Shown here piece after piece: positions 12,680 to 36,241 of a stretch of DNA of 64,000 bases. Made by a program: the position numbers and the translations under genes. Under the pieces are notes generated by a model. The model searched no databases, was not told where the DNA came from, and saw only the letters and a program-made list of their open reading frames with translations. Position 1 is the stretch's first letter. The number at the start of each line of letters is the position of its first letter. The stretch covers positions 4,030,001-4,094,000 of the forward strand of contig NZ_CP108036.1 in NCBI RefSeq assembly GCF_036170895.1, written 5' to 3'. The DNA is from Streptomyces erythrochromogenes. Lineage in GTDB: Bacteria > Actinomycetota > Actinomycetes > Streptomycetales > Streptomycetaceae.

Positions 12680-12750
12680 GCGGATGTAGTTTAATGGTAG
12701 AACATGAGCTTCCCAAGCTTATAGCGCGGGTTCGATTCCCGTCATCCGCT
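12680..12750 (+). tRNA. tRNA-Gly (anticodon CCC)
   Basis: A 71-nt cloverleaf folded by hand: acceptor GCGGATG/CATCCGC, D-stem GTTT/GAAC, anticodon stem TGAGC/GCTTA with loop TTCCCAA, T-stem GCGGG/CCCGT with loop TTCGATT, discriminator T. Loop positions 34-36 read CCC. The 3' CCA is not encoded. A terminator follows 5 nt later. The 3' half resembles the tRNA remnant at 36161-36210. Confidence 0.95.
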
Positions 12751-12755
12751 CTTTA

Positions 12756-12788
12756 AAGAAGGCCCAGGTCAACGACCTGGGCCTTCTT
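12756..12788 (+). terminator. Terminator of tRNA-Gly
   Basis: 15-bp stem AAGAAGGCCCAGGTC / GACCTGGGCCTTCTT with loop AAC. The core CCCAGGTCAACGACCTGGG recurs exactly after the tRNA remnant near 36220. Confidence 0.9.
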
Positions 12789-17252: not shown

Positions 17253-17701
17253 AAAATCTATGGCGGCTGAAGTAGACATTGGGCGGTGGCCTGGCTATGG
17301 TTTCTTTCGTAGCCCAGAGAGACAGTAGGGCCCGGCAGAGACGAACTGCCGGGCAGCAGTAACCGCAGTTGCAGTGCGCAGGACGGTGCGGTGGTGGAGT
17401 TCCGAAGCCAGGGTTGTTGCAGGACGGCGACGGGACTGACGACCGGACCGGGGGGCCCGCAGTGATCAGGGGCCGCCGAGAGAAGTACCGCAGTTAACGC
17501 AGTGGCAGTACCCGAAGTAAGTGCAGTTCGCAGTACCCAGCAGTGAAGTAAGTGAGCAGCACCTCGGTGAAGGCGTCGGCTGCGGGCGCGCGCACCGGGA
17601 AGTTCGGCAGTGGGGTTCTAAGCCAGAGCAGACGCACGATGGGCGACGGGGCTGGCTGCCGGAGAGTGGCGCTGGGTCAGGCCACCAGCAGTACCGCAGT
17701 A
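17253..17701 (+). repeat. 449-nt duplicated non-coding leader, copy 1
   Basis: This segment is identical by eye to 22320-22768, in direct orientation 5,067 bp apart. It contains a promoter, an early hairpin (GCCCGGCAG / CTGCCGGGC, 17330-17354) and many GCAGT pentamers (for example at 17356, 17365, 17371, 17459, 17490, 17499, 17505, 17523, 17530, 17540, 17607, 17688 and 17696). No convincing protein is encoded. After 17701 copy 1 has about 47 extra nt carrying four or five more GCAGT units, then the copies realign near GTTGATCACCGAGGG with scattered differences up to the downstream gene. Confidence 0.95.
17273..17301 (+). promoter_or_regulatory. Vegetative-type promoter of leader copy 1
   Basis: -35 TAGACA (17273-17278), 17-nt spacer, -10 TATGGT (17296-17301), close to the HrdB consensus. 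It predicts transcription from about 17308 and therefore an RNA leader of about 735 nt before the MerR-type gene. Confidence 0.7.
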
Positions 17702-17995
17702 TCAGCAGTAACGCAGTAACCCGCAGTTGCAGTCTCTCCCGCTGGTAGGCAGTTGATCACCGAGGGAAGAACGGAGGAGTTGAGGCGCCATCAGGATCGC
17801 CCGGGCGGAAGTCTGAGCCCGGGTACCGCAGGACATCGATAGTGAGGTGGTCTCCGGTCAAGCAACCGCGATCCCCGCACTCCCGGCAGCGTGTCGGCCG
17901 GGTCGGCGGAAACAGTAGGCCGGCGCAGGACTAGGGCCGGCAGATGGTGTAGCAGTTCCTTCGGGGCCCTGGTGCTGTACGCACCAGGGCCCCTC
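17308..17995 (+). ncRNA. Putative long structured leader or independent ncRNA (copy 1)
   Basis: Predicted transcript from the promoter to the hairpin at 17963-17993. It lacks a convincing open reading frame, carries roughly 19 GCAGU pentamers, mostly in what looks like single-stranded sequence, and ends in a strong stem-loop 50 nt before the downstream start codon. It could be a cis-acting leader with attenuation, or a separate RNA that titrates a GCAGU-binding protein. Function is inference only. Confidence 0.45.
17963..17993 (+). terminator. Terminator-like hairpin before MerR-type gene, copy 1
   Basis: Perfect 13-bp stem GGGGCCCTGGTGC / GCACCAGGGCCCC with loop TGTAC. Copy 2 (22983-23014) has a 14-bp stem, the changed loop base being matched by an extra G. 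Placed 49 nt upstream of the ATG, so it could attenuate expression. Confidence 0.75.
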
Positions 17996-18042
17996 CCCGT
18001 ATTCCGATCCCTTTTCCTCTACCTGTTTCGCAGTGAGGTGCG

Positions 18043-18381
18043 ATGACAGCAGACGACTCGTTCGGCCGTCTCGACGACGACGACTACCCCGCCTACACCA
18101 TGGGCCGAGCCGCCGCCATGCTCGGCACCACCCAGGGCTTCCTCCGCGCCATCGGCGAAGCCCGCCTCATCACCCCGCTCCGCTCCGCCGGCGGCCACCG
18201 CCGCTACTCCCGCCACCAGCTCCGCATCGCCGCCCGCGCCCGCGAACTCGTCGACCACGGCACCCCCGTGGAGGCGGCCTGCCGGATCGTTACCCTCGAA
18301 GACCAGCTCGAGGAAGCCCAGCGCGTCAACACCGAGTACCGCCGCGCAGCGGTCGAGATCAGTCCACTGACTGTGGCTTGA
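18043..18381 (+). CDS. Small MerR-type DNA-binding protein, copy 1
   Basis: A 112-residue protein with a MerR-like winged helix-turn-helix: [20 protein letters not shown], the recognition helix, then [20 protein letters not shown] with the characteristic GGHRRY wing (residues about 48-56), and a C-terminal helix [17 protein letters not shown]. No effector domain, so it is related in layout to BldC-like or minimal MerR proteins. The paralogue at 23041-23379 is identical over the first 48 residues and differs at about 9 of the next 54, then the tails diverge. It follows the duplicated leader, a hairpin and a GCAGT 9 nt before the start, and has only a weak RBS (GAGG). Confidence 0.85.
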
Positions 18382-18419
18382 GGCGGTCGTGCCCGCCGGT
18401 CTCGGCGGGCACGACCGCC
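18382..18419 (+). terminator. Terminator of MerR-type copy 1
   Basis: Perfect 16-bp stem GGCGGTCGTGCCCGCC / GGCGGGCACGACCGCC, beginning at the stop codon. Confidence 0.9.
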
Positions 18420-18521
18420 CGTGCACGTCGGGGTCGTGACGCGTGCTCGCGCCCTCTGGTGACAGCCCGTCGCGGACGTGTAGCGTCTGCGTCAGCTGTC
18501 GTGGTTCGGAAGTTCCCCTTT

Positions 18522-18542
18522 GCCCACGCGTTCGGCGTGGGC
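18522..18542 (+). terminator. Hairpin with U-tract upstream of csp copy 2
   Basis: GCCCACGC / GCGTGGGC stem with loop GTTCG, followed by GTTTTG: a rare canonical-looking intrinsic terminator here. It may sit in the csp leader and act as an attenuator. Confidence 0.55.
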
Positions 18543-18632
18543 GTTTTGCTGTGCTGTGCCGCAGGAACCAGGGCGATCACCTCCGCCTCCCGCATGGAGC
18601 GGGAGGCGTTCATCGACTGGAAGGCAAGAGAC

Positions 18633-18836
18633 ATGGCTACGGGAACTGTGAAGTGGTTCAACGCGGAGAAGGGCTTCGGCTTCATCGCCCAGGACGGCGG
18701 CGGCCCGGACGTCTTCGCCCACTACTCCGCCATCAACTCCTCGGGCTTCCGTGAGCTCCAGGAGGGCCAGGTCGTGACATTCGACGTCACCCAGGGCCAG
18801 AAGGGCCCCCAGGCCGAGAACATCACCCCGGCCTGA
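18633..18836 (+). CDS. CspA-family cold-shock protein (copy 2)
   Basis: A 67-residue cold-shock protein, [20 protein letters not shown], with RNP1 KGFGFI and RNP2 VFAHYS. It is closely similar to copy 1 at 13690, with differences mostly in the loops (EKG for [11 protein letters not shown] for KVNFDIAQ). The ATG at 18633 is the family-standard start. It lies 250 nt after the small MerR-type gene in the same direction, separated by a terminator and the hairpin at 18522. The second MerR-type copy has no csp behind it. Confidence 0.95.
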
Positions 18837-19020
18837 CCTTCACCACCCGCGGGCACCGAGACCGGCACGTAAGGCTGCCCCCTGCAGCTCGTACCGCTCG
18901 ACCCGAACAACGGACCCCTGCGATGTCGGCAGGATCCGAGGCGTACCGAATCAGGGCCGCGCAGCTGCTGCTGCGCGGCCCTGATCTTGTCGGGGTCCGG
19001 GCTGCGGTTCGTATGCGCGG

Positions 19021-19680
19021 TCAGGTGCTGCGCCGGTCGCGGCTGTCCTGGCGGAGGTGGTCGGTGTGTCGGGTCATGGCGTCGAGGTGATCGACGAGAG
19101 CCGAGTCCTCGGGGCGCAGGTGTGGCCGGGTGTCGGTCAGGGGCCGGATGAGGCGGGCTGCGTCGTTGTCGGCCAGGGCCCGGTTAAGTTCGCCGACAGC
19201 AGTCGCGGCGGCGGCGGGGAGGCCGGTGAGGGCTGTGATCTGGCCGGCGAGCCGGCGCAGGTCGGCCGCGTTGTCACGGGCCCAGGCCGTGACGACCCGG
19301 TCTGCGGCACGCGTGTCGCGGGTGGCCTGGACGCGTTCCTCGCCGGTGCTTCCGGCCGTGCCGGGGCGCAGACGCAGATAGCGGCGTTCGGCCGCCTGGC
19401 GGCTGGCGACCCCGAGGGGGCCGGCGAGGTCGGCCCAGCTCGCGCCCTGGCCCCGGGCGGTTTCGATCAGGCCGCTCTCCCAGCCGGCGAGCTGTTCACG
19501 GACCTCGCGCAGCATCAACAGCGCGGCCAGCGCCGGGTGCGGGCCAGCGCCTGCCAGCTCGGCCGGGGGCGTTTTCGCAGAGGAGCGCTGCGCGTGCCTC
19601 ACGGCCTGGTCGATGGCTCGCAAGGCCGTCGCCGCAGCGGGGAAAGGGACCGGTGTGGCCGGCTGGCTGGCTTCGTTCAT
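19021..19680 (-). CDS. rheA: RheA, repressor of hsp18
   Basis: A 219-residue protein divergent from hsp18. RheA in Streptomyces albus is a heat-sensing repressor that binds TGTCATC-N5-GATGACA in the rheA/hsp18 intergenic region (family knowledge). That exact operator is present here at 19723-19741. The protein shows a conserved N-terminal helical part (ALRAIDQAVRHAQRSSAKTP), a central LLMLREVREQLAGWESGLIE, then SWADLAGPLGVASRQAAERR (residues about 95-115), which reads as a helix-turn-helix. The ATG at 19680 has GGAGAG 4-9 nt upstream; an in-frame ATG at 19728 has no RBS and would place the start inside the operator. Confidence 0.88.
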   Translation of the reverse strand: MNEASQPATPVPFPAAATALRAIDQAVRHAQRSSAKTPPAELAGAGPHPALAALLMLREVREQLAGWESGLIETARGQGASWADLAGPLGVASRQAAERRYLRLRPGTAGSTGEERVQATRDTRAADRVVTAWARDNAADLRRLAGQITALTGLPAAAATAVGELNRALADNDAARLIRPLTDTRPHLRPEDSALVDHLDAMTRHTDHLRQDSRDRRST

Positions 19681-19722
19681 GGCACTCTCCGCCGATTGTC
19701 GTCCTCCCGATGACTGATTGCT

Positions 19723-19741
19723 TGTCATCGTTTCGATGACA
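19723..19741. promoter_or_regulatory. RheA operator
   Basis: TGTCATC-GTTTC-GATGACA, an exact match to the published RheA site. It extends to an 8-bp perfect dyad (TGTCATCG / CGATGACA) with TTT in the centre, and lies 67 nt before hsp18 and 42 nt before rheA. Confidence 0.9.
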
Positions 19742-19808
19742 TGTTACAACGGAGGCACGTTGAAGCGCATTGGCAGTTTCTGCCTGAACCAACTGGAGGT
19801 GTTTCGCG

Positions 19809-20243
19809 ATGTTGATGCGCACTGACCCGTTCCGCGAGATGGACCGGATCGTTCAGCAGCTGTCGGGTGCGTCGGGCACGTGGTCGAAGCCCTCCGTAAT
19901 GCCGATGGATGCCTACCGGCAGGGCGACGCGTACGTGATCGCCTTCGACCTCCCCGGCGTGAACACCGAGGCGATCGACATCGACGTCGAGCGGAACATG
20001 CTCACGGTGAAGGCCGAGCGCCGACCCACGGGGAAGTCCGACAGCGTACAGATGGAGCTCTCCGAGCGACCCCTGGGCGTCTTCTCCCGCCAGGTCATGC
20101 TGGCCGACACCCTCGACACCGAGCACATCGAGGCCGACTACGACGCGGGTGTCCTGACCCTGCGGATCCCGATCGCCGAGCGCGCCAAGCCCCGCAAGAT
20201 CAGCATCGGCGGCGAGTCCGGCCGCAAGCAGATCTCCGGCTGA
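19809..20243 (+). CDS. hsp18: Hsp18, small heat-shock protein (Hsp20/alpha-crystallin)
   Basis: A 144-residue ATP-independent holdase. The N-terminal arm MLMRTDPFREMDRIVQQLSG is followed by the alpha-crystallin domain (residues about 38-130; YVIAFDLPGVNTEAIDIDVE, then GVFSRQVMLADTLDTEHIEA) and the GVLTLRIPIAE strand, ending in a short C-terminal tail IEADYDAGVLTLRIPI-related and KPRKISIGG with the I-x-I type anchor. RBS CTGGAGGTG precedes the ATG at 19809. It is divergent from rheA and is followed closely by a terminator-like hairpin and two DUF2267 genes, a recurring stress unit. Confidence 0.95.
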   Translation: MLMRTDPFREMDRIVQQLSGASGTWSKPSVMPMDAYRQGDAYVIAFDLPGVNTEAIDIDVERNMLTVKAERRPTGKSDSVQMELSERPLGVFSRQVMLADTLDTEHIEADYDAGVLTLRIPIAERAKPRKISIGGESGRKQISG

Positions 20244-20257
20244 CCAGCCCCGCAGCG

Positions 20258-20301
20258 GCGGAGGACGGGGAACCGATCCCCTCCGGCACCCCGTCCTCCG
20301 C
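20258..20301 (+). terminator. Hairpin after hsp18
   Basis: 13-bp stem GCGGAGGACGGGG / CCCCGTCCTCCGC with an 18-nt loop. It may terminate or attenuate between hsp18 and the DUF2267 genes. Confidence 0.7.
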
Positions 20302-20339
20302 GCCCCTCGCCCCCTTCACCCCTCCCCGGAGTGACGCGA

Positions 20340-20733
20340 TGTCGATCCGCAGGGAAGCATTCCTGGCCCACGTCCAGGAACGCGGCGAGTACAGACCCTG
20401 TCGGAAGCCGAACGGGCGGCCCGCGTCGTCCTGGCCCTGCTGAGCGCGCACCTCGTCGGCACCGTGCGAGCCGAGCTCGCCGCCCGGCTCCCCGAGGCGT
20501 ACGCCTTGACCCTCCTGAATCCCCTGCAGGCCGCCGAACCGCTATCACCCGAACGCTTCGTCCGCGCGGCCGCGCCCTGGATCGAAGGCGCCACCGAGAA
20601 CACGGCACTGTGGGACACCGGAGCGGTCCTGTCCACCGCGGCCGCCGCGGCAGGAGACGTCCTCATGCGCGACGTCCTCCTCCAGCTCCCGCCCGGATAC
20701 GACCTCCTCTTCGGCCACCCCCAGCCCACCTGA
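20340..20733 (+). pseudogene. DUF2267 protein, frameshifted
   Basis: The first frame starts at ATG 20340 (RBS GGAGTG) and reads MSIRREAFLAHVQERGEY. A second frame then continues TLSEAERAARVVLALLSAHL through to GYDLLFGHPQPT and the stop at 20733. The frames join at about 20394-20397, where one base appears lost, giving a reading-frame shift after GEY. Restored, the product would be a ~131-residue DUF2267 protein resembling its intact neighbour at 20788. It is either a real pseudogene or a sequencing error. DUF2267 proteins are small helical proteins often found beside hsp18 in Streptomyces. Confidence 0.85.
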
Positions 20734-20787
20734 CCGGCCTCGACGGCCCGAACCTGAACCTTCGAAGAGAAAGGCAATCGCAGCACC

Positions 20788-21234
20788 ATGTACGACCAGC
20801 CTCGACCGGACCGGCCCACCACCGCCATGACGTTCGACCAGATGCTGGAACGCGTCCGCTACGAGGGCGCCTACCCCACCCGCGAACGCGCGGAAGACGC
20901 CGTCCGTACCGTTCTTGCCGGGCTCGGCCGGCAGGTCACGGGTGACGAGCGCGTCGACCTCGCGCAGTGCCTGCCCGTCGAAGCCGCCCTCGTCCTGACC
21001 GCCCAGATCCCCGATACCGAGCAGCTCACCGGCTGGGGCTTCGTCAAGGACCTGGCCGCACGGACCGGCGTGAGCCCCGCTGTCGCCCGCTGGGATACCG
21101 GCGCCGTACTCGCCACCGTCACCGCGCTCGCCGGACCCGACCTCCTCGCCCGCATCCTCCAGCGACTTCCCGACGACTACGCGCTCCTCTTCGGACAGGC
21201 GCAACTGCGCCGGCCTGAGCGCGCCGCCGCCTGA
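20788..21234 (+). CDS. DUF2267 protein
   Basis: A 148-residue predominantly helical protein. It carries the DUF2267 pattern: MTFDQMLERVRYEGAYPTRE, AEDAVRTVLAGLGRQVTGDE, a DLAQCLPVEAALVLTAQIPD segment and the ARWDTGAVLATVTALAGPDL, then DYALLFGQAQ end. It parallels the frameshifted gene immediately upstream (GAVLSTAAAAAGD; DLLFGHPQ). RBS GAAGAGAAAGG lies upstream of ATG 20788. The position after hsp18 suggests a heat or stress-linked role, but the biochemical function is unknown. A strong hairpin follows. Confidence 0.85.
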   Translation: MYDQPRPDRPTTAMTFDQMLERVRYEGAYPTRERAEDAVRTVLAGLGRQVTGDERVDLAQCLPVEAALVLTAQIPDTEQLTGWGFVKDLAARTGVSPAVARWDTGAVLATVTALAGPDLLARILQRLPDDYALLFGQAQLRRPERAAA

Positions 21235-21264
21235 CCGGAGCCGGCTGCACGCGGACACGCAATG

Positions 21265-21294
21265 GGGCCGGGACCGATACTCCGGTCCCGGCCC
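21265..21294. terminator. Bidirectional hairpin terminator
   Basis: 12-bp stem GGGCCGGGACCG / CGGTCCCGGCCC between DUF2267 and the convergent csbD-like gene. Confidence 0.88.
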
Positions 21295-21307
21295 GTGCAC
21301 GCGAGGG

Positions 21308-21481
21308 TCAGTGCTTGAAGGTGTCCTTGACCTTCTCCTTGGCCTCGCGGGCATCGCCCTTGGCCTGCTCCGCGCGACCCTCGGCGGTCAGCCGCTCGTT
21401 TTCCGTCAGGCGGCCAGCGGTCTCCTTGAGCTTGCCCTTGGCCTGCTCGCCCTTTGCCTCGGCCTTCTGCTCACCAGACAC
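21308..21481 (-). CDS. CsbD-family stress protein (57 aa)
   Basis: A 57-residue CsbD-like protein, read by hand from a GTG start at 21481 to TGA at 21308. The protein begins MSGEQKAEAKGEQAKGKLKE, contains RLTENERLTAEGRAEQAKGD, and ends REAKEKVKDTFKH. The repeated A/K/E-rich helix with KGKxKE and AEGRAEQAKGDA blocks is the CsbD signature. Family members are induced by general stress and are largely unfolded; the function is not settled. An AGGGAGTGATC RBS-like stretch precedes the start. Confidence 0.85.
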   Translation of the reverse strand: MSGEQKAEAKGEQAKGKLKETAGRLTENERLTAEGRAEQAKGDAREAKEKVKDTFKH

Positions 21482-21683
21482 AGCTGATCACTCCCTGCTC
21501 GATGGAAGGTTCTTACAGAACCCCGTATGACCGGTGGGCTCCCTCCTAAACAGACGGGGCACCACGGCCCGACCCGAAGCGACGGGGGTCTTCGACGATG
21601 ACCTGGATGTCGAGGCGGTTTGCGCGGAGCTCACGGAGGCGTGCCAGCGTGGCGGAGGGCGGTGGTGACGAGCCGGGATCGTG

Positions 21684-21899
21684 TCAGGCCGGCTCGGACA
21701 GGACGCGGGTGGCCTCGGGGAGCTCGTAGACGTGAGCGGCCACCCCTTGCAGCGGCAGGAGAGGGCGCAGGGGACATGAGGTCGGGGTGTGGTCGTGGTC
21801 GACTTCCCAGGTGGGCAACCGTGCGGCCGGGGCGCAGATGGTAGTGACGGCGTAGAGGGTGCCGAAGCAGCCCCGGCACACCAGAGAAGCGTGGATCAC
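21684..21899 (-). CDS. Small Cys/His-containing hypothetical protein
   Basis: A 71-residue protein from GTG 21899, preceded by GGAGG 6 nt upstream: MIHASLVCRGCFGTLYAVTT. It has CRGC near the start and WEVDHDHTPTSCPL in the middle, and these Cys and His residues could bind a metal. No homologue recognised. It lies between the CsbD-like gene and the second leader copy, on the minus strand. The RBS makes a real gene likely. Confidence 0.6.
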   Translation of the reverse strand: MIHASLVCRGCFGTLYAVTTICAPAARLPTWEVDHDHTPTSCPLRPLLPLQGVAAHVYELPEATRVLSEPA

Positions 21900-22009
21900 G
21901 TGAGAGCCTCCGGATGAACCGACTCGGCTGTGCCTTCCACAGGGCGGCGCTCCCCCGCCTGGGGGAGCTGGCGCCAGGTGCTTTCCGTCTTGCACCCGAG
22001 GGGTTGGGC

Positions 22010-22317
22010 AGAGGCCAGACGCTGCCACAGCGGGTCGGAGCGGCGGGGACGGTGGCGCCGCGGACAGCCCGTTCCTCAACGAGCTGCGTGTAGAGGAGTG
22101 CGCCCTGGTTCGCGGCTTCTCCGGGGATCTGGTCACGGGCGCGTGCCGGGCTACGGGAAGGCCTTCGGCGCGCGTGTACCGGAAGGCAGCCAACCGCTCT
22201 GCGGCTGCGCCCTCCGCCCGGGGCAGCACTGCCTCCCCCAGCCGCTCCTTGTGCTGCGCATCTGCAGACCCCCCATCGGCCGTGCGTTCGAGTTCGATTA
22301 CCTCCTCGCTCGCCATG
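22010..22317 (-). pseudogene. Broken small gene, unknown function
   Basis: From ATG 22317 one frame reads MASEEVIELERTADGGSADA then AAAERLAAFRYTRAEGLPVA. The coding character then switches to another frame with RDQIPGEAANQGALLYTQLV and EERAVRGATVPAAPTRCGSV. The frames join near 22145-22155. Both halves read like real protein, so this looks like a frameshifted gene. It abuts the start of the duplicated leader (22320). Function not recognised. Confidence 0.5.
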
Positions 22318-22319
22318 TA

Positions 22320-22768
22320 AAAATCTATGGCGGCTGAAGTAGACATTGGGCGGTGGCCTGGCTATGGTTTCTTTCGTAGCCCAGAGAGACAGTAGGGCCC
22401 GGCAGAGACGAACTGCCGGGCAGCAGTAACCGCAGTTGCAGTGCGCAGGACGGTGCGGTGGTGGAGTTCCGAAGCCAGGGTTGTTGCAGGACGGCGACGG
22501 GACTGACGACCGGACCGGGGGGCCCGCAGTGATCAGGGGCCGCCGAGAGAAGTACCGCAGTTAACGCAGTGGCAGTACCCGAAGTAAGTGCAGTTCGCAG
22601 TACCCAGCAGTGAAGTAAGTGAGCAGCACCTCGGTGAAGGCGTCGGCTGCGGGCGCGCGCACCGGGAAGTTCGGCAGTGGGGTTCTAAGCCAGAGCAGAC
22701 GCACGATGGGCGACGGGGCTGGCTGCCGGAGAGTGGCGCTGGGTCAGGCCACCAGCAGTACCGCAGTA
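22320..22768 (+). repeat. 449-nt duplicated non-coding leader, copy 2
   Basis: Identical by eye to 17253-17701. The left boundary abuts the broken small gene. After 22768 copy 2 lacks about 47 nt present in copy 1 and joins directly to CAGTTGATCACCGAGGG. The following ~210 nt up to the hairpin are about 95% similar to copy 1. Confidence 0.95.
22340..22368 (+). promoter_or_regulatory. Promoter of leader copy 2
   Basis: TAGACA-N17-TATGGT, the same as in copy 1. It predicts a start near 22375 and a leader of about 665 nt. Confidence 0.7.
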
Positions 22769-23040: not shown

Positions 23041-23379
23041 ATGACAGCAGACGACTCGTTCGGCCGTCTCGACGACGACGACTACCCCGCCTACACCATG
23101 GGCCGGGCCGCCGCCATGCTCGGCACCACCCAGGGCTTCCTCCGCGCCATCGGCGAAGCCCGCCTCATCACCCCGCTCCGCTCCGAGGGCGGCCACCGCC
23201 GTTACTCCCGCTACCAGCTCCGCATCGCCGCCCGCGCCCGCGAACTCGTCGACCAGGGCACCCCGATCGATGCCGCCTGCCGCATCATCATCCTCGAAGA
23301 CCAGCTCGAGGAAGCCCAGCGCATCAACGCCGAATACCGCCGCGCCGCCGAATCATCCGCACAGCCGCCCTCGGCCTGA
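23041..23379 (+). CDS. Small MerR-type DNA-binding protein, copy 2
   Basis: A 112-residue paralogue of the protein at 18043. The first 48 residues, including the helix-turn-helix [20 protein letters not shown], are identical. Substitutions then include Ala49Glu, His58Tyr and His72Gln, and the last ten residues differ. The wing [10 protein letters not shown] and the C-terminal helix [17 protein letters not shown] are retained. It has a better RBS than copy 1 (GAGAGG 5 nt before ATG 23041). No effector domain. The target genes are unknown; the duplicated upstream GCAGT array is an obvious candidate binding region. Confidence 0.85.
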   Translation: MTADDSFGRLDDDDYPAYTMGRAAAMLGTTQGFLRAIGEARLITPLRSEGGHRRYSRYQLRIAARARELVDQGTPIDAACRIIILEDQLEEAQRINAEYRRAAESSAQPPSA

Positions 23380-36160: not shown

Positions 36161-36210
36161 GGGTGATTCCCAAACTCGTAGCGCGGGTTCGATTCCCGCC
36201 ACCCGCTCCA
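36161..36210 (+). pseudogene. Degenerate tRNA-Gly remnant (attachment-site-like)
   Basis: GGGTGATTCCCAAACTCG followed by TAGCGCGGGTTCGATTCCCG and CCACCCGCTCCA. The T-arm and acceptor 3' half match tRNA-Gly at 12680, with TAGCGCGGGTTCGATTCCCG identical and a near-identical CA(T/C)CCGCTC. The D-arm and 5' anticodon stem are missing, so it cannot be functional. A matching terminator follows. The rest of 35938-36459 holds no gene I can support. Confidence 0.75.
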
Positions 36211-36216
36211 CGACGA

Positions 36217-36241
36217 AGCCCCAGGTCAACGACCTGGGGCT
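36217..36241 (+). terminator. Terminator copy after tRNA remnant
   Basis: AGCCCCAGGTC-AAC-GACCTGGGGCT. The core CCCAGGTCAACGACCTGGG is the same as behind tRNA-Gly at 12763. Confidence 0.85.

What the first reader, a model, noticed from the sequence alone, without database searches (positions are those of the whole stretch)
17253..22768. A 449-nt non-coding leader is perfectly duplicated while the downstream proteins have diverged
17253-17701 and 22320-22768 are identical by eye. The following MerR-type proteins are identical over 48 residues but then differ at about 9 of 54, and their tails differ completely. Non-coding sequence being more conserved than coding sequence suggests a selected RNA or binding-site array, or local gene conversion. 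I know of no described family for it.
Basis: seen in the sequence. Interest (0 to 1): 0.85.

Follow-up and report, generated by a model that had tools for sequence, protein, structure and literature searches.

The report
Large modular leader RNA in Streptomyces
The duplicated stretch of DNA makes the first part of a long, intricately folded RNA that sits in front of a small stress-type regulator gene; the RNA is shared by many soil actinomycetes, is missing from the RNA-family catalogue we searched, and probably switches that gene on or off.

Summary
In detail: 17253-17701 and 22320-22768 are identical at 449 of 449 bases. The homology runs on, at 90% with indels, into a small MerR-type gene. 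The unit is a promoter-like sequence, a 5' hairpin, two homologous hairpin domains on GCAGTA-rich linkers, a 165-174-nt multi-helix core, a 13-14-bp hairpin and the MerR gene. The core shows compensatory base changes (29 cells against 6.3 in shuffles; 59 against 11.4 in a wider set). A covariance model finds it in 82 of 394 Actinomycetia genomes and 103 of 121 genomes of the genus. All 82 also encode the MerR family; 39 of 47 inspected cores lie 67-222 nt upstream of it. The window has no Rfam 15 match there, and the papers I could search describe none. So this is a new family of large modular structured leader RNA. The perfect identity of the two copies is best read as local gene conversion or recent duplication: across loci the core is less conserved than the protein. 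Most likely the RNA is a cis-acting attenuator of an HspR-like regulator in stress-gene islands. Structure is shown; termination, signal and direction of control are inferred. Four of 47 cores have no MerR gene nearby, so a role in trans stays open.

The parts
17253..17307 (+). Copy 1 promoter-like region: upstream element AATCTATGG, TAGACA (17273-17278), 17-nt spacer, TATGGT (17296-17301)
   Evidence: The homology begins here in copies 1, 2 and 3 and at query base 1 or 2 in 78 of 80 named loci; the pattern hits only the 4 leader loci genome-wide; in L098 it abuts the ATG directly. Promoter function is inferred.
17330..17354 (+). Copy 1 5' hairpin H1 (GCCCGGCAG..CTGCCGGGC)
   Evidence: Fold -19.8 kcal/mol, z -4.11; GAACTG-type hairpin seen by eye upstream of many distant cores
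17385..17449 (+). Copy 1 hairpin domain A
   Evidence: R2 84.6 bits; covariation in A4
17601..17665 (+). Copy 1 hairpin domain B, homologous to A
   Evidence: R2 73.6 bits; covariation in A4
17687..17758 (+). Copy 1 GCAGTA-rich linker; site of the indel between copies 1 and 2
   Evidence: GCAGTA enrichment
17784..17951 (+). Copy 1 structured core (model R1)
   Evidence: R1 190.2 bits; covariation
17963..17993 (+). Copy 1 terminator-like hairpin upstream of the MerR ribosome-binding site
   Evidence: -32.2 kcal/mol, z -6.14; such a hairpin found in 79 of 80 named loci, 23-47 nt before the start
18043..18381 (+). Copy 1 small MerR-type regulator (112 aa; HspR-like, below the HspR cut-off)
   Evidence: PF13411 E 5.5e-9; NF047375 HspR 37.1 bits, cut-off 105
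18633..18836 (+). Cold-shock protein gene downstream of copy 1
   Evidence: PF00313 107.7 bits
22320..22374 (+). Copy 2 promoter-like region (TAGACA 22340-22345, TATGGT 22363-22368)
   Evidence: As copy 1
22397..22421 (+). Copy 2 5' hairpin H1
   Evidence: Identical to copy 1; also in the minimum-energy fold
22452..22516 (+). Copy 2 hairpin domain A
   Evidence: R2 84.6 bits
22668..22732 (+). Copy 2 hairpin domain B
   Evidence: R2 73.6 bits
22804..22971 (+). Copy 2 structured core
   Evidence: R1 190.5 bits
22983..23014 (+). Copy 2 terminator-like hairpin
   Evidence: -35.7 kcal/mol, z -6.48
23041..23379 (+). Copy 2 small MerR-type regulator
   Evidence: PF13411 E 5.5e-9

Best explanation
The duplicated sequence is the 5' leader (about 650-700 nt) of a small HspR-like MerR regulator gene. 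It folds into a 5' hairpin, a variable number of homologous hairpin domains on GCAGUA-rich linkers, a strongly conserved multi-helix core and a 13-14-bp hairpin that ends about 26 nt before the start codon. The most likely mechanism is a cis-acting attenuator: transcription starts at the 5' promoter, the RNA folds, the last hairpin stops most transcripts (or insulates the ribosome-binding site), and a condition, ligand or bound protein (perhaps the regulator itself or the neighbouring cold-shock protein) changes the folding so that the MerR gene is expressed. The 449/449 identity of the two copies comes from local gene conversion or a recent partial duplication. SHOWN by computation: the modular anatomy, RNA-level selection, linkage to MerR, distribution. 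INFERRED: transcription start, termination at the hairpin, regulation of MerR, the signal and the direction.
For: Core alignment A2 (60 sequences): 98.8% of cells paired; 7 pairs and 29 cells changed on both sides against 3.2 and 6.3 in shuffles; slid controls 29-46% paired. Wider, model-fitted set A3 (46 distinct rows): 17 pairs and 59 cells against 4.6 and 11.4. The variable P6 hairpin folds in 60 of 60 with many different stems, mean z -2.7. Domains A/B, A4 (38 sequences): 93.2% paired, 8 pairs and 28 cells against 4.2 and 9.2. R1 in 82 of 394 Actinomycetia genomes, all 82 also with the MerR family (95 of 394). In 40 loci I chose from the hits, 39 of 47 cores have MerR starting 67-222 nt downstream and 4 more are the upstream member of a tandem pair. 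77 of 80 named MerR loci match the leader from its first or second base to base 740 or beyond. The hairpin ends 23-47 nt (median 26) before the start in 79 of 80, which leaves little room for a promoter after it. The promoter-like pattern occurs in the genome only at the 4 leader loci. No reading frame runs through the leader (0 of 80 open beyond 700 nt). Mosaic identity among copies 1-3. Island context: cold-shock, Hsp20, DUF2267, CsbD-like and SpoIIE genes.
Against: Four of 47 cores have no MerR in the ~3 kb held: two in tandem in L192 and one in L202 are followed by convergent genes (a SpoIIE-domain and a histidine-kinase gene), and L215 by a co-oriented molybdopterin-oxidoreductase gene 125 nt on. 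The hairpin has no U-tract. I found by eye no conserved alternative antiterminator pairing. Helix P0 next to the hairpin was not supported by a swap test in 60 genus sequences (own -14.62, swapped -14.75 kcal/mol), and in 37 distant ones own was -12.22, swapped -11.68, shuffled -12.69. 13 of 95 MerR genomes lack a core match (stricter filters); two Rhodococcus loci and one Saccharopolyspora locus have MerR without a detectable core. A promoter inside the core cannot be excluded. No expression data. Co-occurrence is confounded by shared ancestry.
Confidence: 0.6

Rival explanations
1. A free-standing structured RNA that acts in trans (for example as a scaffold or protein sponge through its GCAGUA repeats) and ends at the hairpin; the MerR gene behind it is made by read-through and is a partner, not the purpose.
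For: Three of 47 cores (two in L192, one in L202) have no co-oriented gene behind them in the ORF lists made, and L192, L215 and, imperfectly, L202 keep a hairpin after the core by eye. Five tandem core pairs in one family, four sharing one MerR. The repeated domains are more than a simple attenuator needs. GCAGTA 383 observed against 24.6 expected on the RNA strand, reverse complement 1 against 2.0.
Against: All 82 RNA genomes also have the MerR family; 39 of 47 cores lie directly upstream of it; near-constant spacing to the start codon in 79 of 80.
Confidence: 0.25
2. A DNA-level operator array (direct repeats bound by the MerR protein, as recalled for BldC) with no RNA function.
For: Strand-biased GCAGT direct repeats, commonest spacings 6-10; a MerR-type protein encoded next to it.
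Against: Changes on both sides of helices in three alignments; the most conserved part, the core, is not the repeat array.
Confidence: 0.05
3. Only a recent local duplication, with no conserved function in the leader.
For: The copies are 5 kb apart and identical over 449 nt; some other genomes hold core pairs with equal scores.
Against: The core is conserved in other genera with covariation.
Confidence: 0.03
4. A leader read by temperature (RNA thermosensor) rather than by a ligand or protein, in line with the cold-shock and heat-shock neighbours. This is a special form of the best explanation.
For: Cold-shock gene within the held flanks in 39 of 80 named loci; Hsp20 in 10 of 80, and in this window between the two copies; regulator nearest to HspR.
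Against: Very stable hairpin (-32 to -36 kcal/mol) and many invariant core bases suggest a binding site rather than a melting switch; no background rate for these neighbours was measured.
Confidence: 0.1

Closest known systems
Riboswitch and attenuator leaders (for example the Streptomyces glycine riboswitch, named in passages of PMC8780764; its tandem aptamers are recalled)
   Same: 5' leader with conserved junction core, repeated homologous domains, hairpin before the gene
   Different: No Rfam match; much longer; domain number varies from 0 to 4; no switch between two folds identified; some cores have no MerR behind them
dauA, livJ, pntA and asfR motifs of Streptomyces (PMC11109978, passages seen)
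   Same: Candidate structured leaders of Streptomyces genes; the asfR motif precedes a regulator gene and is proposed to bind protein
   Different: They precede other genes; the held main text has no mention of MerR
Large ornate RNAs GOLLD, ROOL and OLE (PMC12286853, abstract and passages seen)
   Same: Long multi-domain RNAs; ROOL and GOLLD have a variable linker
   Different: ROOL and GOLLD are described as encoded by phages and prophages; no phage record matched here; this RNA lies upstream of a MerR gene
HspR and BldC-type MerR regulators
   Same: MerR-type DNA-binding domain, small size; nearest NCBIfam model is HspR
   Different: 37.1 bits against a cut-off of 105 for HspR; 16.3 against 77 for BldC

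Membership tests
Structured cis-regulatory leader RNA | Conserved secondary structure with compensatory changes | tested here: met
Structured cis-regulatory leader RNA | Fixed position upstream of one gene family | tested here: met
   39 of 47 cores directly, 4 more in tandem, 4 without; 82 of 82 RNA genomes have the family
Structured cis-regulatory leader RNA | Changes expression of that gene | not testable with these tools
   No expression data
Riboswitch | Binds a small ligand | not testable with these tools
   No binding data
Riboswitch | Two mutually exclusive folds linking aptamer and terminator or RBS | tested here: inconclusive
   Strong hairpin present; alternative pairing looked for by eye only; P0 swap test negative
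Any Rfam 15 family | Score above gathering threshold | tested here: not met
   Whole window: one match, a tRNA; leader of copy 1 at E up to 5: two sub-threshold hits on the last hairpin
GOLLD/ROOL/OLE ornate RNAs | Match to their Rfam models | tested here: not met
   that these families are in the library is recalled
HspR (for the protein) | NF047375 curated cut-off | tested here: not met
   37.1 bits, cut-off 105

The most novel reading that the evidence does not exclude
A multivalent stress RNA: a large modular RNA whose number of homologous hairpin domains and GCAGUA linker sites varies between copies and species, made from several loci per cell, that collects an RNA-binding protein (such as a cold-shock protein) or assembles with itself, and that is coupled to an HspR-like regulator. 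It would be a new kind of RNA machine rather than an attenuator.
Probability: 0.17. Interest if true: 0.92.

Novelty: new variant of a known kind. Interest (0 to 1): 0.77.

Why it matters
A several-hundred-nucleotide structured RNA, found in 103 of 121 sampled genomes of an intensively studied antibiotic-producing genus, in up to six copies and also on plasmids, has no match in Rfam 15. It offers a directly testable control point for stress-island regulators in Streptomyces, and a natural series (0 to 4 hairpin domains, core-deleted forms, leaderless forms, copies without MerR) for working out how large RNAs gain and lose domains.

Tried and rejected
Coding leader rejected: the MerR frame meets an upstream stop at a median of 177 nt and in none of 80 loci is it open beyond 700 nt. 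Known RNA family rejected. Phage origin: no match among 50,697 phage records. Regulon search with the promoter-like element: only the 4 leader loci. Helix P0 (GGAGGAG with UUCCUUC beside the last hairpin) appears in the minimum-energy fold, but own pairs were no better than swapped pairs, so it is not claimed. An antiterminator between P7 and the last hairpin was considered by eye and dropped because it does not covary. No background rate was measured for stress-gene neighbours, and several named loci have truncated flanks, so the counts are descriptive. Alignments contained wrongly oriented loci, and A1 had wrong coordinates from a script error; none is used for a claim, and replace them. The P, A and B alignments looked at one strand only and served to find the domains. 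Literature: ten searches and passages of eight papers showed no description of this RNA. Most subscription papers are not held, nor is the 224-motif paper, so an earlier description cannot be excluded.

Counts for core-less loci and for the named loci were also corrected.
Full report
THE OBSERVATION. The two segments are identical at 449 of 449 positions and the in-register match falls to background just outside. Gapped comparison shows that the homology continues for another 599 columns at 90% identity, through the rest of the leader and about 101 codons of the gene. The sharp right edge is an indel in a GCAGTA-rich linker. The left edge is the real start of the unit: the third copy in this genome begins at the same base, and 78 of 80 named loci begin at query base 1 or 2. 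The genome (8.6 Mb; window = C1:4030001-4094000) has three full copies and one short copy.

ANATOMY. Read on the + strand: an upstream element AATCTATGG, TAGACA, 17 bases, TATGGT; a 5' hairpin; two hairpin domains A and B; a core; a hairpin; the MerR start. In L098 the promoter-like sequence abuts the ATG directly, with no leader. The pattern occurs in the whole genome at four places, the four leader loci, with zero hits for the reversed control. The linkers are rich in GCAGTA: 383 observed in 77 leaders against 24.6 in dinucleotide shuffles, while the reverse complement occurs once against 2.0 expected.

RNA-LEVEL SELECTION. For the core I aligned 60 sequences chosen for diversity from 112 unique ones. 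With the structure, 98.8% of cells pair; 7 pairs and 29 cells change on both sides, against 3.2 and 6.3 in 500 shuffles (1 and 0 shuffles as high), and slid versions pair at 29-46%. Many core pairs never vary and say nothing. The P6 hairpin inside the core could not be aligned by column, so I folded it in each sequence: 60 of 60 form a hairpin, with many different stems, mean z -2.7, 57 of 60 below -1 (outer four bases on each side kept in the shuffles). In a wider set, 47 hits fitted to the model (46 distinct), 17 pairs and 59 cells change on both sides, against 4.6 and 11.4. That alignment leans to the model, and helices 5 and 6 are poorly supported in it (71% and 41% paired). Domains A and B align with each other and share one hairpin: 38 sequences, 93.2% paired, 8 pairs and 28 cells changed on both sides, against 4.2 and 9.2; one slid control (+2) reached 30 cells but only 28% pairing. 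A minimum-energy fold of 651 nt of the copy 2 leader shows the same domains (z -3.98, 20 shuffles).

DISTRIBUTION. The core model R1 matches in 82 of 394 Actinomycetia genomes, 19 of 137 genera, and in 103 of 121 genomes of the genus, up to six matches each; both searches used stricter filters. In a phylum-wide sample 8 of 198 had a match, all of the same genus. The MerR family (E up to 1e-15) is in 95 of the same 394 genomes; all 82 RNA genomes are among them, 13 have MerR only, 299 neither. These are not independent events. The A/B model R2 finds 131 domains in the 80 named loci: two in 51, one in 22, none in 5, three in one, four in one. In the window's own genome R2 finds six places, two per full leader and none elsewhere. 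In 45 more loci it finds 12, eleven in loci of the same genus and one in Kitasatospora. So the core looks old and the A/B domains look like additions in this lineage. Named records: Nonomuraea gerenzanensis and Kitasatospora fiedleri carry the core (84.6 and 73.7 bits); Rhodococcus jostii pRHL1, R. opacus pLPS8 and Saccharopolyspora pogona have a MerR relative but no core above 10 bits. 85 plasmid records match leader plus gene, 63 of them Streptomyces; the Rhodococcus rows that I saw match only in the gene. No phage record matches.

LINKAGE TO THE GENE. From the hits I chose 40 loci (20 + 20). Of their 47 core hits, 39 have the MerR match starting 67-222 nt downstream, four are the upstream member of a tandem pair, and four have no MerR in the sequence held. 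Of these four, the tandem pair of L192 and the core of L202 are followed by convergent genes (SpoIIE-domain; PAS/GAF histidine kinase), while L215 is followed 125 nt on by a co-oriented molybdopterin-oxidoreductase gene. By eye L192 and L215 keep a good hairpin after the core and L202 an imperfect one. In 79 of 80 named loci a hairpin ends 23-47 nt (median 26) before the MerR start. I also took 20 MerR loci that seemed to lack the core: one (L245) has it, three (L235-L237) have a weak partial match (33.7-48.6 bits). Of the other 19 including those three, 10 keep the 3' strand of the closing helix 74-88 nt before the gene, and L230 keeps a closing helix with two simple hairpins. This looks like a deletion series.

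THE GENE AND ITS NEIGHBOURS. The protein is MerR_1. Its best NCBIfam model is HspR, well below the cut-off (37.1 against 105), and the best solved-structure match is weak (E 0.041). Between and beside the two copies lie cold-shock, Hsp20, DUF2267, CBS and SpoIIE genes and relatives of genes annotated as HSP18 regulator and CsbD on a Streptomyces plasmid. Among the 80 named loci a cold-shock gene lies in the held flanks in 39, a relative of an annotated ATP-binding protein in 23, SpoIIE in 11, Hsp20 in 10; no background rate was measured.

WHY THE COPIES ARE IDENTICAL. Across 77 loci mean pairwise identity is 0.857 for the core, 0.966 for codon positions 1+2 and 0.785 for position 3. Constraint therefore does not make the leader identical. 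Copies 1 and 2 are identical over the first 449 nt but 90% beyond; copy 1 against copy 3 is 86-87%; copy 2 against copy 3 is 86%, 94% and 91% in successive pieces. This mosaic is what gene conversion or partial re-duplication gives.

MECHANISM. I commit to an attenuator-type leader (0.6). The steps shown are structure, position and linkage. The steps inferred are transcription start, termination at a hairpin without a U-tract, and a signal. The main rival, a stand-alone RNA acting in trans (0.25), rests on the cores without MerR, the tandem copies and the elaborate repeated domains.

NOVELTY. No Rfam 15 family matches. Ten literature searches and passages of eight papers gave no description (calls listed under Tried and rejected). 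A 2024 survey whose genomes included Streptomyces avermitilis reports dauA, livJ, pntA and asfR motifs in Streptomyces, and its held main text has no mention of MerR (passages). I therefore call it a new variant of a known kind: a large, modular, domain-repeating leader RNA.

Noticed in passing
window 12680-12750 and 36167-36238: A tRNA gene, and a 72-nt repeat (12710-12781 against 36167-36238, 85%) that covers its 3' part and flank 23 kb away; possibly the ends of an integrated element that holds both leader copies.
   Followed up: no
window 19021-21430: A stress cassette (HSP18-regulator-like, Hsp20, two DUF2267, CsbD-like) sits between the two leader-MerR units, with relatives beside the unit on Streptomyces plasmid pADI95-16a.
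   Followed up: partly
L184, L188, L191, L192, L220: Two RNA cores in tandem, starts 456-1207 nt apart, all in one family (f20); four pairs precede a single MerR gene, the pair in L192 precedes none.
   Followed up: partly
L098, L234: Leaderless forms: the promoter-like sequence lies at the start codon (L098) or 42 nt before the gene start (L234), with no structured RNA between.
   Followed up: partly
L139, L140: Leaders with four and three hairpin domains, about 1 kb long.
   Followed up: no
L215: A core followed 125 nt on by a molybdopterin-oxidoreductase gene instead of MerR.
   Followed up: partly
L225, L227: A Saccharopolyspora and a Rhodococcus plasmid carry the MerR relative next to Hsp20 genes (and a J-domain gene in L227) without a detectable RNA core.
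   Followed up: partly
77 leaders of L068-L147: GCAGTA repeats in the linkers are about 16-fold enriched and almost wholly on the RNA strand; their role is unexplained.
   Followed up: partly
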